From: a virus
Reading direction: 5' to 3' (one strand)
DNA: 64,000 bases
Virus record (IMG/VR): IMGVR_UViG_3300009185_000001
Span: 62,001-126,000 of that record
The translations under genes and the position numbers were made by a program. Position 1 is the first letter of the stretch. Every line of letters begins with the position of its first letter. Shown one piece after another: positions 6,313 to 50,503 of the stretch. The notes beneath the pieces were generated by a model. That model saw only the letters and a program-made list of their open reading frames with translations. It searched no databases and had not been told where the DNA came from.

Positions 6313-6723
6313 ATGCCTAGAAAAAAGAAAGTAGAAGAAAATTCCTTAGATGATTTAGATATGGATGATATTCTTGTAGACGGAAAGTTCTATCAAGGAA
6401 ACGAAAACATCCTTCGCAAGGATGCATTGTTTAAATGGACGGATGACATGAAAGCAGAGCTTAGACTTTGCGTTAAAAGTATTTTGCATTTTGCAGAAAG
6501 TCACTTCTACATAATAACCGAAGATGGTAAGAAGAAAATAGAACTTTATAAGTATCAAAAAAATTTGTTAAAAGCATTTAAGAATGAACGATTTAACGTT
6601 GTATTGAGTTCTCGCCAATCAGGTAAGTGTTTGGCAAATAACATTTTAATAAAAATAAAAAACAAAAAAACTGGTGAAATAGAAGAGATTACGATAGAAG
6701 AGTTTTATAATAAATTTAATTAA
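6313..6723 (+). CDS. terL: Terminase large subunit N-terminal part fused to split-intein N half
   Basis: A 136-residue protein. Residues 1-105 are the start of a T4 gp17-like terminase, ending in the first part of the ATPase P-loop (SSRQSGK). Residue 106 is Cys and begins a 31-residue intein N half (CLANNILIKI..., ending FYNKFN) with the usual block A pattern, then TAA. The remainder of the P-loop (TTT) and of the terminase is encoded from 8480 on. The protein by itself has no complete Walker A, so packaging activity needs protein trans-splicing with the product of 8123-10021. The start is ATG 6313, with GTAAATAT just upstream. A stop-codon pseudogene is unlikely because both halves end exactly at intein boundaries. 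Confidence 0.88.
   Translation: MPRKKKVEENSLDDLDMDDILVDGKFYQGNENILRKDALFKWTDDMKAELRLCVKSILHFAESHFYIITEDGKKKIELYKYQKNLLKAFKNERFNVVLSSRQSGKCLANNILIKIKNKKTGEIEEITIEEFYNKFN
6628..6720 (+). other. Split intein, N-terminal fragment (31 aa)
   Basis: Encodes the intein N half from catalytic Cys1 (TGT at 6628) to the last sense codon before the TAA at 6721. At 31 residues it covers only splicing block A, far shorter than the roughly 100-residue N halves of canonical split inteins. It resembles the known atypically split terminase inteins such as AceL-TerL. That comparison is from memory, not alignment. Confidence 0.85.
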
Positions 6724-6752
6724 AAAACATACTAGAAAACATTTGGCAAGAG

Positions 6753-6760
6753 AGTAAATA
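6753..6760 (+). promoter_or_regulatory. Candidate late promoter before the homing endonuclease
   Basis: AGTAAATA followed by TATTCATG, 6 bases from the start of the endonuclease at 6766, in the 42-base gap after the N-half stop. It would allow expression separate from terL. Confidence 0.35.
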
Positions 6761-6765
6761 TATTC

Positions 6766-8130
6766 ATGACCATTCATGAATTACTTAAAAAGTGTAAAAA
6801 AATTAAAAAAACAAATGGAGAATCCGCCGCTATTGATTTTTATGATACACAAATATTTTCCACAAATTTTTGTCCAACTTGTAAGGTGACTGGCAAAAAA
6901 TTATCATATGATAACTGGTCTGAATACTTTACTATATGCGGAGCAGCAGTCAAAAATGCACTTAAAAAGTGTGATAAAAATATAGAAAAGGCCAAATCTA
7001 TAATAGAAAATGAATATATATTTGTAGAAGAACTTTGGGGATTTTATTCAGATTTTAGGAGTTTATCTACAGCAATAGGAAAAAGAAAACTAAATCCTTC
7101 TCTTAACATCTCTTTATATGAAAAATATTTTAAAGATAAAACCAAGTGCTGTTTTCCTAGTTGTTATAATAAAGTTCCACATGAATTATTAAGATTAAAT
7201 TCTTGTTGTCAAACTCACTATAATCAAAATATTAAAATTAAAAAGGGAGAAAAAACGTTAGAAGATTATTCACATGAATGTAAAATTTGTAATGAAAAAT
7301 TTGCAAATTCCTCGCATTTAACTATTCATATAGAAAAAAAACATATGAAAGCAGAAGAGTATTATTTGAAGTATTTTTCTGACGCTAGAGGATCGTGTAA
7401 ATGGTGTAACAAGCCGACAAAATTCATAAGCATAACAAATGGCTATTGTGATTTTTGTTATAATACAAGTTGTAATATTGATTATCATAACAAATATCAT
7501 AATAGGCATAAATGTGGAGAAATTATCTCAAAATCATTAAAAGAAAACAAAAACATGCCAAATCAAAAAGAATATTGGATGAAAAGAGGTATGGACGAAG
7601 AAAATGCTATAAAAATGGTATCTGAAAGACAAACCACAAATAGTATACCAGTTATAATGAAAAGAAATAAATGTTCTAGAAAGGAAGCCGAATATATAAG
7701 ATCGGAAATAACAAAAAAATGGTTAGATTCATTTCCATGTTTAAACTATAGCAAAGTTTCACAAGAATTGTTTTGGAGTATTTATGAAGAATTAAAGAAA
7801 ACTTATAAAGAAATATATTTTGCTACTTTTAATGGTGGTGTTAAAGATGATTCAGGGGCTAATCATGAATATAAAGTTAAAACTAACGATTCTTATAAGA
7901 AATTAGATTTTTATATAAAAGATATAAATAGAGCTATAGAATTTCAAGGAACCTATTGGCACAGTGAAAGAAATACTAGAGATAAATTTTCACCAGAAAA
8001 AGATTTAATAAGAGAAAACCAAATAATAGACTCGCTTGGATGTAAAATACTAAATATTAAAGAGCTAGATTATTACGAAAATAAAGAAAAAACTGTCCAA
8101 AAATGTTTAAATTTTTTAAAAAATGAATAA
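6766..8130 (+). CDS. Zinc-finger homing endonuclease with Vsr-like nuclease domain, inside the split intein
   Basis: A 454-residue protein lying between the two intein halves. The N-terminal two thirds hold several Cys/His clusters: CPTC near residue 38, a C2H2-like finger (CKIC...H...H) near 170-192 and CKWC...CDFC near 210-235. Residues 345-454 form a Vsr/PD-(D/E)XK-type nuclease: KKLDFYI, then IEFQGTYWH, then a helix and GCKILNIKELDYY, as in the EDxHD homing endonucleases (I-Bth0305I family) described in fractured genes with split inteins. The likely role is cleavage of an intein-free terL allele and spread of this locus. Its stop overlaps the start of the C-half gene. GTAAATAT precedes the ATG, so it may have its own promoter. 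Confidence 0.82.
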   Translation: MTIHELLKKCKKIKKTNGESAAIDFYDTQIFSTNFCPTCKVTGKKLSYDNWSEYFTICGAAVKNALKKCDKNIEKAKSIIENEYIFVEELWGFYSDFRSLSTAIGKRKLNPSLNISLYEKYFKDKTKCCFPSCYNKVPHELLRLNSCCQTHYNQNIKIKKGEKTLEDYSHECKICNEKFANSSHLTIHIEKKHMKAEEYYLKYFSDARGSCKWCNKPTKFISITNGYCDFCYNTSCNIDYHNKYHNRHKCGEIISKSLKENKNMPNQKEYWMKRGMDEENAIKMVSERQTTNSIPVIMKRNKCSRKEAEYIRSEITKKWLDSFPCLNYSKVSQELFWSIYEELKKTYKEIYFATFNGGVKDDSGANHEYKVKTNDSYKKLDFYIKDINRAIEFQGTYWHSERNTRDKFSPEKDLIRENQIIDSLGCKILNIKELDYYENKEKTVQKCLNFLKNE

Positions 8131-8479
8131 AAAAGAAAAAATAATACAGACTTATGATGTTTCTGACTATGAAATAATGACAGATGATGGTTGGAAAGAT
8201 ATAACTCATGTACATAAAACCATTCCCTTTGATATATGGCATTTAGAAACTGATGGTGGATTATTTATTGATTGTGCAGATGAACATATCGTGATAGATG
8301 AATTTGGAAACTCCGTATATGTTCAAGATTTAAATATTGGTGATAAAATAAAAACAATTAATGGTATAGAAAAAGTAAAAAATGTATTTAAAACAGATTC
8401 TTTGCCAGCAAACATGTATGATGTTACTGTTAATAGTAAAAATCATACCTTTTATAGCAACGGAATATTGTCTCATAAC
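8123..8479 (+). other. Split intein, C-terminal fragment (119 aa)
   Basis: Encodes the intein C half from its own ATG to the terminal Asn (AAC 8477-8479), followed by Thr as the first C-extein residue. It contains blocks B, F and G, with the typical YDVTV...HTFYSNGILSHN ending split here by one ellipsis. The long C half and short N half identify the atypical split site near residue 30. Confidence 0.85.
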
Positions 8480-10021
8480 ACCACAACCATAACTATTTAT
8501 GCATTATGGTTAGTATGTTTTCAATCTGATAAACGAATAACAATTGTAGCAAATAAAGAAGCTACTGCTAAGGAAATATTTGCTAGAATTAAAATGGCAT
8601 ATGAACAACTTCCTATATATTTAAAACCCCCGATAAAATCTTGGAGAAAAGATGGTTTTAATCTTGGAAATGATTCGGCAATAACTGTTAGTACAACATC
8701 ATCATCCGGACCTCGCGGAACTACAAGTAATCTTTTAATTATTGATGAGATGGCTCACTGTCCTAATGATTTGATGAAAGAACTTTGGAGGTCTGCTATT
8801 CCAATTATTTCATCGATGAAAAAGTCGCAAATTGTTGTTATTAGTACTCCAAATGGAACTGATAATAAATTTTATGAACTTTATGAAGATGCTAAAAAAG
8901 AAAATAGCGAATGGCATTTAGAGGTTGTTAATTGGTGGGATGTTCCCAGTAGAGATGAAGAATGGAAGACAAAAACACTGGCTCTCATGGGATCTAAGGA
9001 GGATTTTGAACAAGAATATGCCAATAAATTCCACGAAGCGGGAAAGGGCGTTATTGATGAAGAATATCTAGCTCAATTAAAAGCCAGTTGCTCAGAACCT
9101 GTATTATCTTTAGAAAATGGAGCTTATCAAATATTTAAACTGCCCAATCCAGAGAGTTTCTATGTTATAGGAGTTGACGTTGGAGAAGGAATTGGAAGAT
9201 CAAATTCAGTTGCACAGATATTAGACGTTTCAAATTTACAAGATATTCAACAAGTTGCTCTATTTGCTTCAAATAATATAAATCCATTTCATTTCGGAAC
9301 TCGTTTGATGGGAATTTTACAGGATTGGGGAAGACCTCCAATTCTTGTTGAAAATAATAATAATGGTCAGCAAATTTTAGATGTTTTATGCCAAACTCAC
9401 AACTATGAAAATGTTGTTTCATATCATTTTGAAGGATTTAGTAAACACTATAACAATGCTAATAGATTTGGTATACACAATCATACAAATACTAGATATA
9501 AAGGAATAACAAATTTTAGATATTGGGTTAATAGCTTAAAAGCAGTGAAATTAAATGATATTGAAACATTATTAGAAATAGATAATTTTATTCGACTTCC
9601 AAATTTTACATATTCAAAAAAATCTGATAAATATTTAGATGATAGAGTTTTTGGACTTATTTGGGCATTATTTATTCTCGATCCTTCATTGGTTGGAAAA
9701 TATTTTAACATTTTAGACATAGACGATCAGGGAAGACCTATGAAAATTTTTCCAATTTCAGATAATAAAGAAATTATTAAGAATAGTCCTTTATTAATAG
9801 GAGGAGGACAGACAATTGTTAGAAAACCTTCTATAAATACTCCATTTTCACATGTCGGTGACATGGATATGGCCTCTGGATTTGATTTATATTCAGATGA
9901 TAGAGCGGCTCTTACCCAATGGTTGTTGGAAAGTGATGGTCCAGATCGTATGTTGCCTCTAAAAGCTGATGAAATGGATAAGTCTTCTATGGACACATAC
10001 CATCCAACTATAGTTTTTTAA
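8123..10021 (+). CDS. terL: Split-intein C half fused to terminase large subunit C-terminal part
   Basis: A 632-residue protein. Residues 1-119 are the intein C half, with block B (CADEHIV), block F (NMYDVTV) and the terminal SHN; Thr120 is the +1 extein residue. From 120 the terminase continues: TTT completes Walker A, Walker B is LLIIDEM (204-210), the coupling motif STPNG (241-245), and the RNase H-like nuclease has VIGVDVG with Asp352 and a later Asp pair (506-507). After splicing the product would be 618 residues, against 610 for T4 gp17. It drives DNA packaging and cuts concatemers. The start overlaps the endonuclease stop. The two terminase parts together leave no gap in the family pattern. 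Confidence 0.9.
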   Translation: MNKKEKIIQTYDVSDYEIMTDDGWKDITHVHKTIPFDIWHLETDGGLFIDCADEHIVIDEFGNSVYVQDLNIGDKIKTINGIEKVKNVFKTDSLPANMYDVTVNSKNHTFYSNGILSHNTTTITIYALWLVCFQSDKRITIVANKEATAKEIFARIKMAYEQLPIYLKPPIKSWRKDGFNLGNDSAITVSTTSSSGPRGTTSNLLIIDEMAHCPNDLMKELWRSAIPIISSMKKSQIVVISTPNGTDNKFYELYEDAKKENSEWHLEVVNWWDVPSRDEEWKTKTLALMGSKEDFEQEYANKFHEAGKGVIDEEYLAQLKASCSEPVLSLENGAYQIFKLPNPESFYVIGVDVGEGIGRSNSVAQILDVSNLQDIQQVALFASNNINPFHFGTRLMGILQDWGRPPILVENNNNGQQILDVLCQTHNYENVVSYHFEGFSKHYNNANRFGIHNHTNTRYKGITNFRYWVNSLKAVKLNDIETLLEIDNFIRLPNFTYSKKSDKYLDDRVFGLIWALFILDPSLVGKYFNILDIDDQGRPMKIFPISDNKEIIKNSPLLIGGGQTIVRKPSINTPFSHVGDMDMASGFDLYSDDRAALTQWLLESDGPDRMLPLKADEMDKSSMDTYHPTIVF

Positions 10022-48748: not shown

Positions 48749-49678
48749 ATGAAACAATATTCAATTTTTCACATTGATGGAGGTTGCGGAAAATCTATAA
48801 TTGCTACTTCTGTAGTAAAATCTATAAAATCTGCATATCCAGAACATGAATTAATAGTTGTAACCTCATATCCAGAGGTATTTTTACATAATCCTAATGT
48901 TTTTAGAGTATATAAATTTGGAAATATTCCTTATTTTTATGATGATTACATAAAAAACAAAGATTCTAAAATATTCAGAATGGAACCGTATCATTCTGGA
49001 GATCTTTTATATAGAAAAAAACATTTAGCAGAAATTTGGTGTGATATATTCAATATTCCATGTATTTCTACTAAACCAGAACTCTTTCTAACTGAAAGAG
49101 AGTTGATGTTTGTTCAAAATATTTTAAATAAGCAAGGTCCAATACTCACAATTCAATCTTCAGGAGGTGCTGAAAATCAAAAAATACCATATTCTTGGTC
49201 TAGAGATCTTCCAATATCATTTACAGCAGAAATTGTTGATTCTATTAAAGATAAATTTGATAAAATACTTCATATTAAGAGAGAAAATCAACAAACTTTT
49301 CAAAATACTATTCCAGTAACAGATAATTTTAGAAATTTGTTCTGTTATATTGCATTATCAGACAAGTTTTTATGTATAGATTCATTTGCTCAACATGCAG
49401 CAGCGGCTTTAAACAAAAATGCTACTGTTGGATGGATTTCAAACTCTCCAAAAGTATTTGGACATGAAATTCATACAAATATTGTAGTAGATAAAGAAGA
49501 ATTGTTTCGTCATAGAATAGATTCATACTTAGAATCTGATGATTGGACAGGTGGTAGGCTACATGAATGTCCATATAACAATATTAATAAACTATTTGAC
49601 AAAGATGTTTTTATAGAATCAATTTTAGGTTCAAAAAATGAGTTGTTTTTTGATTTGAATCCTACTATAGTGTTTTAA
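48749..49678 (+). CDS. GT9-like glycosyltransferase (heptosyltransferase-type)
   Basis: A 309-residue GT-B protein. The N-terminal FHIDGGCGKSIIATSVVKSI (7-26) and ELIVVTSYPEVFLHNPNV (near 35-52) match the heptosyltransferase opening, and YIALSDKFLCIDSFAQHAAAAL near 205-226 matches the acceptor-binding helix with the DS-x-xQH pattern. ADP-heptose or a related sugar donor is possible. It is three bases from a sulfotransferase gene and faces the tail fibre genes. Confidence 0.72.
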   Translation: MKQYSIFHIDGGCGKSIIATSVVKSIKSAYPEHELIVVTSYPEVFLHNPNVFRVYKFGNIPYFYDDYIKNKDSKIFRMEPYHSGDLLYRKKHLAEIWCDIFNIPCISTKPELFLTERELMFVQNILNKQGPILTIQSSGGAENQKIPYSWSRDLPISFTAEIVDSIKDKFDKILHIKRENQQTFQNTIPVTDNFRNLFCYIALSDKFLCIDSFAQHAAAALNKNATVGWISNSPKVFGHEIHTNIVVDKEELFRHRIDSYLESDDWTGGRLHECPYNNINKLFDKDVFIESILGSKNELFFDLNPTIVF

Positions 49679-49681
49679 TAT

Positions 49682-50503
49682 ATGATATTTTTCAATTCTT
49701 CAATGCCAAGAAGCATGTCAACGCTTCTGCAATGTATTCTTAATCAAAATCCAACCATAACAGCAACTCCTACTGATCCAGTTCTCGAATATCTGTATGG
49801 AGCTAGAATGAACTTTACAAATTCTCCAGAAGTTAAGGCTATTGATAAGAATTTAGCAATAAACGCATGGAGAGGATTTTGTTGGGGTGGTTTGGAAGGA
49901 TATGCAAGTTCATATTCAGAAAAATCTAATATTTGCATAAAAACAAGAGGCGGTACTATTCATTATAAATGGTTTGAGGCATTTATGCCATATAAACCAA
50001 AGATGATATGCATGGTAAGAAACTTAAAGAGTATTATTTCATCCATGGAAAAAATTTATCGTAAAAACCAAGAAAATCACCAATCAATTCAAAATCATGC
50101 AGAGATGTCTGGTACGATCACTGCAAAAAGAGTAGATTCATGGTTTGCATCACCACCAGTAGGACTTGCATTGGAGCGTTTAGAGCAGTGTTTTCTAGAG
50201 GGCATTAATAAAGATGTTGTATATGTCAGAGCAGAGGATTTAACAAACAATCCTCAACAAGAACTTAATAAAATTTACAATTATCTTGGACTAGAATCAT
50301 TTCAACATAATTTTAAAAACGTTGAGCAGTCCATTAAAGAAGATGATTCTGTATATGGTCTTACTAGTGATCTGCACACTATTAGAAGTGAAGTGATTCC
50401 CTTAAATACGGATTATAAGGAAGTTTTAGGCAAAGATATTTGTAATTGGATTGATAAGACGTATTATAACTATCAAAAAAGATTTGGCTATATTAATTTT
50501 TAA
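49682..50503 (+). CDS. Sulfotransferase
   Basis: A 273-residue PAPS-dependent sulfotransferase. FNSSMPRSMSTLLQCIL (4-20) is the 5'-phosphosulfate-binding loop, CIKTRGG near 80, and PKMICMVRNLKSIISSMEKIY (near 100-120) is the 3'-phosphate site with Arg and Ser. RAEDLTNNPQQELNKIYNYLG near 180-200 is typical of the C-terminal part. It adds sulfate to a sugar or protein hydroxyl. Together with the GT9-like gene it may decorate phage fibres or host glycans. Confidence 0.83.
   Translation: MIFFNSSMPRSMSTLLQCILNQNPTITATPTDPVLEYLYGARMNFTNSPEVKAIDKNLAINAWRGFCWGGLEGYASSYSEKSNICIKTRGGTIHYKWFEAFMPYKPKMICMVRNLKSIISSMEKIYRKNQENHQSIQNHAEMSGTITAKRVDSWFASPPVGLALERLEQCFLEGINKDVVYVRAEDLTNNPQQELNKIYNYLGLESFQHNFKNVEQSIKEDDSVYGLTSDLHTIRSEVIPLNTDYKEVLGKDICNWIDKTYYNYQKRFGYINF

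What the first reader, a model, noticed from the sequence alone, without database searches (positions are those of the whole stretch)
6313..10021. Fractured terminase gene: atypically split intein inside the P-loop with a homing endonuclease between the halves
Seen: the terminase is encoded by two genes. The first ends SSRQSGK then a 31-residue intein N half starting at Cys106; the second begins with a 119-residue intein C half ending SHN, then TTT and the rest of the terminase. The junction rebuilds the Walker A motif exactly and the joined exteins are 618 residues, near T4 gp17. Known: AceL-TerL and related environmental terminase inteins have this unusual short-N split; fractured genes with split inteins and Vsr-like endonucleases have been described from metagenomes. 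Inference: this is a fresh member with its full natural locus, and packaging depends on trans-splicing of two proteins.
Basis: partly seen in the sequence, partly recalled or inferred. Interest (0 to 1): 0.82.

Follow-up and report, generated by a model that had tools for sequence, protein, structure and literature searches.

The report
Split-intein terminase with homing endonuclease gene
A phage's essential DNA-packaging motor is encoded as two separate proteins that should stitch themselves together through a split intein, with the selfish DNA-cutting gene that spread this insert sitting between them; it is a new and unusually well documented case of a known arrangement, and its relatives have invaded the same ATP-binding motif in several other phage motor genes.

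Summary
In this 202,880-bp virus record, terL is split into an N gene (6313-6723: 105 extein + 31 intein residues) and a C gene (8123-10021: 119 intein + 513 extein residues). A 454-codon Vsr/EDxHD-like homing endonuclease gene (6766-8130) lies between them. Intein-free sisters (94-96% identical exteins) read straight through SRQSGK|TTT, so the site is exact. No second terL and no known intron was found.

The element is mobile. Against two other carriers, intein DNA is 88-94% identical while terminase DNA is only 64-72%. About 65 bp upstream of the site look co-converted. The endonuclease is under purifying selection (dN/dS about 0.18). One relative lost it and kept the split.

It belongs to a known kind: fractured genes, with an S2-like atypical split. 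New here is a survey of a Walker A family. Split copies occur in terL (about 50 distinct), SbcC/gp46, DnaB helicase, ClpB-like ATPase and a clamp loader. In some relatives the endonuclease is hidden in another frame of a contiguous intein; some need two trans-splicing steps. Cultured Ackermannviridae carry contiguous versions.

Trans-splicing and cleavage were not tested experimentally.

The parts
6313..6627 (+). TerL N-extein (105 aa), ends in the first part of the Walker A motif, SSRQSGK
   Evidence: (phrog_5989 terminase, 1.6e-17)
6628..6723 (+). IntN half, 31 aa from Cys106, plus TAA stop; ends after the TIEEFYNKF stretch, at the position where contiguous relatives have a variable linker
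6563..6627 (+). apparent co-conversion tract, 5' side: 24 mismatches in the last 60 nt against sister L004, versus 13 in the first 255 nt; matches intein carriers instead. On the 3' side only about 9 nt (8480-8488)
6766..8130 (+). free-standing homing endonuclease gene, 454 aa: zinc-binding and C2H2-like regions plus C-terminal Vsr/EDxHD-like nuclease
   Evidence: top fold match I-Bth0305I catalytic domain; dN/dS about 0.18
7273..7344 (+). C2H2 zinc finger-like segment of the HEG (residues 170-193)
   Evidence: E 0.00037, just under the Pfam cut-off
7870..8115 (+). nuclease domain of the HEG (residues 369-450), with LDFYI...IEFQGTYWH invariant residues
8123..8130 (+). overlap of the HEG stop with the start of the C gene (ATGAATAA), which would allow coupled translation
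8123..8479 (+). IntC half, 119 aa, with CADEH block B, block F and block G (SNGILSHN)
8480..10021 (+). TerL C-extein (513 aa), begins TTT (rest of Walker A), with Walker B LLIIDEMAH and the nuclease domain

Best explanation
This is a fractured terL gene: a mobile element made of a class 1 split intein (Cys1, Asn119 of IntC, Thr+1) plus a free-standing Vsr/EDxHD-like homing endonuclease gene, inserted between the Lys and Thr codons of the TerL Walker A motif. The N gene makes TerL(1-105)-IntN and the C gene makes IntC-TerL(106-618). The 31-residue IntN docks into IntC, completes the Hint fold, excises the intein and rebuilds SRQSGKT, giving an active 618-residue packaging motor. Neither half alone has a complete P-loop, so packaging waits for splicing. 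In mixed infections the endonuclease would cut terL alleles that have an intact Walker A sequence, and repair from the carrier copies IntN-HEG-IntC with flanking DNA. Shown: gene anatomy, exact empty site, horizontal transfer, co-conversion-like tract, purifying selection on HEG and intein. Inferred: splicing, cleavage, and dependence of packaging on splicing.
For: Exact empty site in L003-L005 at 94-96% extein identity. One TerL, one N half and one HEG in the record. Split intein with the same stop and restart in independent relatives, with invariant splicing residues. The IntC model matches VidaL best and also Cat and gp41-1, all solved inteins; TIGR01443 is over its cut-off. Extein DNA 64-72% versus intein/HEG DNA 85-94% identical between carriers; dS 1.4-2.2 or saturated in exteins versus 0.13-0.59 in intein and HEG. 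About 65-bp upstream co-conversion-like tract. HEG top fold match is the homing endonuclease I-Bth0305I. L016 keeps the split and only the HEG's 3' tail. No known intron family.
Against: No splicing or cleavage assay. The HEG model has moderate confidence (pLDDT 68, pTM 0.34) and its best fold match is only E 0.03. IntN alone finds no solved structure. The block B Thr is replaced by Ala (CADEH), although VidaL has CAFNH. The record may be incomplete, so a second terL elsewhere is not formally excluded.
Confidence: 0.88

Rival explanations
1. The split intein splices, but the endonuclease no longer drives homing here; the element is now simply inherited.
For: L016, L106, L108 and others show that HEGs decay while the split intein stays.
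Against: In the window the HEG is full length, keeps residues invariant across six relatives and has dN/dS about 0.18 against L085/L007. The co-conversion-like tract suggests recent movement.
Confidence: 0.12
2. Genes in pieces without splicing: the two TerL halves associate non-covalently, as reported for Aeromonas phage Aeh1 NrdA.
For: A HEG-split essential gene that keeps function in pieces is known (described in PMC3653736).
Against: The break is inside the Walker A loop, both halves carry conserved intein sequence and the splicing residues are invariant in the family, which would have no reason to persist without splicing.
Confidence: 0.03
3. The interruption is removed at the RNA level by an intron.
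For: Phage HEGs often lie in group I introns; ICP1 terL is spliced at RNA level (PMC10448857).
Against: No intron family matched, even at E up to 1; both sides are coding Hint-fold sequence.
Confidence: 0.01
4. Assembly artefact, frameshift or dead gene.
For: Metagenomic assembly; reads not available; the only identical contig (L002) may be the same assembly.
Against: Same stop/restart in L085/L007 and L016, and the same architecture in dozens of loci; purifying selection on all parts.
Confidence: 0.01

Closest known systems
Fractured genes (Dassa et al. 2009, NAR gkp095)
   Same: An enzyme gene broken in two by a split intein with a free-standing, often Vsr-like, endonuclease gene between the halves; mainly phages (abstract recalled from memory; the paper is not held).
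   Different: As recalled, those loci encode DNA synthesis and repair enzymes; here it is the packaging motor, with a short-IntN split, a visible co-conversion-like tract and many empty-site relatives.
AceL-TerL, GOS-TerL and Cat split inteins
   Same: TerL inteins naturally split after helix alpha-1 (S2 position) with short IntN, 25-37 aa (PMC13014065; PMC11766414). The window's IntN is 31 aa and appears to end at the same element.
   Different: Those use +1 Cys; this one has +1 Thr at Walker A. AceL's own site (from memory) corresponds to the REFE|C-type site found in L086, not Walker A. Sequence similarity to Cat is weak (phmmer E 0.0019).
VidaL split intein
   Same: Best solved match by sequence (E 6.6e-5) and fold (E 2e-5); shares CAxxH in block B.
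   Different: Split at S1 with a 16-aa IntN (PMC13014065); its host gene and site were not checked here.
Contiguous Walker A TerL inteins of Ackermannviridae (LIMEstone1, AG3, 3M, VAP7, Kuja, VPALA)
   Same: Same site (SRQSGK|C...SHN|TT, with minor changes), same class 1 motifs.
   Different: One reading frame, no HEG inside; a variable linker lies where the window is split.
I-Bth0305I (EDxHD homing endonuclease)
   Same: Top fold match of the HEG's nuclease domain; extended multi-domain endonuclease (PMC3943268).
   Different: The window's HEG lies between split-intein halves, not in a group I intron, and has extra zinc-binding regions.
Mycobacteriophage TerL1-a inteins
   Same: Classic P-loop insertion between the invariant Lys and Thr of Walker A (PMC5050341).
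   Different: The term 'split intein' does not occur in that paper's main text.

Membership tests
Fractured gene (split intein + free-standing HEG) | Conserved enzyme gene broken into two ORFs, each carrying one intein half | tested here: met
Fractured gene (split intein + free-standing HEG) | Endonuclease gene inserted between the halves with its own start and stop | tested here: met
Class 1 intein | Cys/Ser at position 1, terminal Asn, nucleophile at +1, Hint fold | tested here: met
   Cys1, SHN|T; conserved in A4/A5; Hint-fold matches; TIGR01443 above cut-off
Class 1 intein | Catalyses splicing | not testable with these tools
   needs co-expression
Atypically split intein, S2 (AceL/GOS type) | Natural IntN of 15-37 aa, split after alpha-1 | tested here: inconclusive
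   IntN length 31 aa fits; position after TIEEFYNKF deduced from alignment with contiguous relatives, no structure of the joined intein
Vsr-like / EDxHD homing endonuclease | Vsr-type nuclease fold with conserved D, E, H residues | tested here: met
   PF18741 E 5e-5 but below its cut-off; I-Bth0305I top fold match, probability 1.00, E 0.029; residues invariant
Vsr-like / EDxHD homing endonuclease | Cuts the intein-free allele near the insertion site | not testable with these tools
   only indirect: co-conversion-like tract
T4-type TerL | Walker A, Walker B and Terminase_6N, single copy | tested here: met
   PF03237 45.3 bits over 22; single copy in the record
Group I intron | Catalytic RNA core | tested here: not met
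   no relevant match

The most novel reading that the evidence does not exclude
The window's element belongs to a distinct mobile family that specialises in Walker A motifs of phage ATPases in general: split inteins at GK|C...SHN|S/T with an adjacent Vsr-like HEG in TerL, SbcC/gp46, DnaB helicase, ClpB-like ATPase (both ATP sites of one protein) and a clamp loader. It has three life forms: intein split by a free-standing HEG; HEG lost with the split kept; and contiguous intein with the HEG hidden in another reading frame. Together these give a testable route for how split inteins arise and why they stay split.
Probability: 0.45. Interest if true: 0.75.

Novelty: new member of a known kind. Interest (0 to 1): 0.57.

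Why it matters
The locus shows a natural, complete fractured gene with its likely endonuclease, its empty sites and the footprint of its last move. That makes homing of a split intein directly testable. Relatives show contiguous, split and HEG-less states of the same intein, so the origin of split inteins can be studied, and natural pairs that must not cross-react (two split inteins in one protein) are useful for protein engineering. For phage biology it implies that a DNA-packaging motor becomes active only after two proteins are ligated.

Tried and rejected
Dassa 2009 could not be read; no held paper gave the natural loci of AceL, GOS or VidaL. IntN alone against PDB gave only chance hits. 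The T4-type late promoter TATAAATA is no commoner than chance, and promoter-like sites match the shuffles, so no separate regulation of the HEG is claimed. Rfam found no intron. I first read the HEG matches inside contiguous inteins (L195, L210, L238, L240) as an in-frame nuclease domain; translation showed that the HEG lies in a different frame, and that reading was dropped. L002 as independent confirmation was dropped because it is 100% identical over 13.9 kb.
Full report
1. OBSERVATION. The window is bases 62001-126000 of a 202,880-bp IMG/VR virus record. Splitting at Cys106 and after SHN gives 105 + 31 and 119 + 513 residues, joined extein 618 aa. PHROGs places both halves in terminase large subunit families and Pfam gives Terminase_6N for the C gene at 45.3 bits. 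NCBIfam's intein_Cterm model is over its cut-off in the C gene.

2. EMPTY SITE. Most of the 80 relatives fetched by TerL similarity have no intein. In L003-L005 (94-96% aa identity) the N-extein runs directly into the C-extein at exactly the predicted point. The window record has one C half, one N half and one HEG, and no known intron covers the region. The record is possibly incomplete, so absence of a second terL is strong but not absolute.

3. INTEIN. Cys1, block B (CADEH in the window), block F and SNGILSHN are conserved in 11 aligned IntC halves, with variation at some positions. In the aligned N halves the Walker A lysine and Cys1 are invariant. The IntC model (pLDDT 80) finds only inteins among its best hits, VidaL first, with gp41-1 and Cat among the top eight; sequence also puts VidaL first. 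A 31-aa IntN falls in the published 15-37 aa range for natural atypical splits, and its end after TIEEFYNKF agrees with the S2 class of AceL and GOS TerL (PMC13014065). That assignment rests on alignment with contiguous inteins at the same site in cultured Ackermannviridae, which carry a variable linker where the window is split. This suggests that the HEG entered a tolerant loop of a contiguous intein (inference).

4. ENDONUCLEASE. The HEG has a weak C2H2 match and a weak match to the Vsr-related PF18741, both below Pfam cut-offs. The fold search on a moderate model (pLDDT 68) returns the catalytic domain of homing endonuclease I-Bth0305I first (probability 1.00, E 0.029). LDF, IEF, G, YWH and other residues are invariant over six HEGs; the five relatives are 35-47% identical to the window's.

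5. MOBILITY. Three distinct carriers share nearly the same intein. Window against L085/L007: IntN 93.8%, IntC 90.2%, HEG 85-89% DNA identity, but exteins 69-72%. Window against L016: intein 87-89%, exteins 64-68%. Synonymous divergence is 1.4-2.2 or saturated in exteins and 0.13-0.59 in intein and HEG; HEG dN/dS is about 0.18. So the element moved between lineages long after the terminases diverged, and the HEG has been kept functional. Against sister L004, the window has 13 mismatches in the first 255 nt, 24 in the 60 nt just upstream of the site, 2 in the first 9 nt downstream and 1 in the next 60. In those last 60 upstream nt the distant carrier L085/L007 differs from the window at only 5 positions. 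This is what gene conversion from a carrier leaves behind, with a longer 5' tract. Most intein-free relatives at similar distance do not show such a rise, but L071 and L060 share part of the tract sequence, so the exact donor is unknown.

6. HEG LOSS. In L016 the gap is about 36 bp and still encodes the last dozen HEG residues (TIQTCLDFLKNE* against TVQKCLNFLKNE*), overlapping the IntC start as in the window. The split therefore persists after the selfish gene is gone. My own HMMs flagged HEG remnants in eight more distinct TerL loci and one helicase locus.

7. WIDER FAMILY. With HMMs built from A3, A4 and A5, I counted distinct sequences at GK|C...SHN|S/T among the fetched loci. TerL, split: about 38 with a substantial HEG, 8 with a remnant, 4 with none. 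Other P-loop proteins, split: SbcC/gp46-like 9, DnaB-like helicase 3, ClpB-like 3, clamp loader 1. The identity of L106, L162, L213, L218, L159, L166 and L228 was checked with Pfam or PHROGs; the others rest on the sequence after the junction. These are counts among sequences found by similarity and by a SHN-containing pattern, not frequencies, and most were not inspected one by one.

8. UNUSUAL RELATIVES. (a) L166: one ClpB-like ATPase in three ORFs with a split intein and HEG at both Walker A sites. (b) L102: TerL in three ORFs, split at Walker A with a HEG and split again after DECAFIE by an ATGA overlap, plus two contiguous inteins; its relative L111 has the second one contiguous. (c) L195, L210, L238, L240: contiguous Walker A intein whose roughly 280-codon insert is open in the TerL frame while a Vsr-like HEG is encoded in another frame. 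Synonymous shuffles of the HEG give 15-19 stops in the TerL frame on average, never fewer than 7, against 0 observed. A hidden out-of-frame HNH in a phage methylase insertion without splicing domains was published in 2025 (PMC11855218); here the host insertion is an intein. (d) L006, L029, L060, L073: a different contiguous intein, starting with Ala and probably class 3, occupies the same Walker A site. (e) Vibrio phage VP-1 (L093), a cultured isolate: TerL with the contiguous Walker A intein and, at DQEYD|C, a split intein whose N half is fused to a GIY-YIG domain; VAP7 has that second site empty.

9. COMPARISON AND NOVELTY. The arrangement meets the definition of a fractured gene. P-loop insertion is a known favourite of inteins (PMC5050341), and a jumbo phage with a split PolB intein and HNH gene is described (PMC6892783). 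The window is therefore a new member of a known kind. The key papers on native loci were not available, so whether the Walker A family as a whole has been described is open; I put 0.45 on its being an undescribed variant.

10. SHOWN VERSUS INFERRED. Shown: anatomy, exact site, homology, horizontal transfer, co-conversion-like tract, selection, HEG loss in a relative. Inferred: trans-splicing, cleavage at the empty site, dependence of packaging on splicing, coupled translation at the 8-nt overlap.

Noticed in passing
L195 5162-5998, L210 5162-5998, L238 4764-5600, L240 758-1594: Vsr-like HEG encoded out of frame inside a contiguous Walker A TerL intein that stays open in the TerL frame (0 stops, 15-19 expected from synonymous shuffles).
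   Followed up: partly
L166 3162-10108: ClpB-like ATPase in three ORFs with a split intein and a HEG at each of its two Walker A motifs; would need two non-crossing trans-splicing reactions.
   Followed up: partly
L102 64-5464; L104 3-4831: TerL encoded in three ORFs with two split inteins in L102, which has two further contiguous inteins and whose second split is a bare ATGA overlap. L104 shows two split sites too, but is a contig end with a possible frameshift.
   Followed up: partly
L093 3479-6818 (Vibrio phage VP-1, MH363700): Cultured phage with split TerL: IntN fused in frame to a GIY-YIG domain, IntC in the next gene, whose annotated start (5784) misses part of the intein.
   Followed up: partly
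L086 5265-7850: TerL with three inteins: the split Walker A one with HEG and two contiguous ones (after DFIE and after REFE).
   Followed up: partly
L006, L029, L060, L073: Unrelated contiguous intein starting with Ala (class 3-like) at the same Walker A site.
   Followed up: no
own genome, L087 (record 148149-148388 -) and L088 (record 49447-49707 -): Two more, contiguous, inteins in the same virus: one in what looks like a prohead protease/structural gene, one in a ribonucleotide reductase gene.
   Followed up: no
L091 2686-3570 (Dickeya phage LIMEstone1): A free-standing HEG (F-LimIX) sits directly upstream of an intein-bearing terL, possibly collaborative homing.
   Followed up: no
L255-L263: Relatives of the IntC half in bacterial MAGs (Bacteroidales, Flavobacterium, Erysipelotrichaceae, Clostridia and others), probably phage contigs; a hint at host range of the family.
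   Followed up: no
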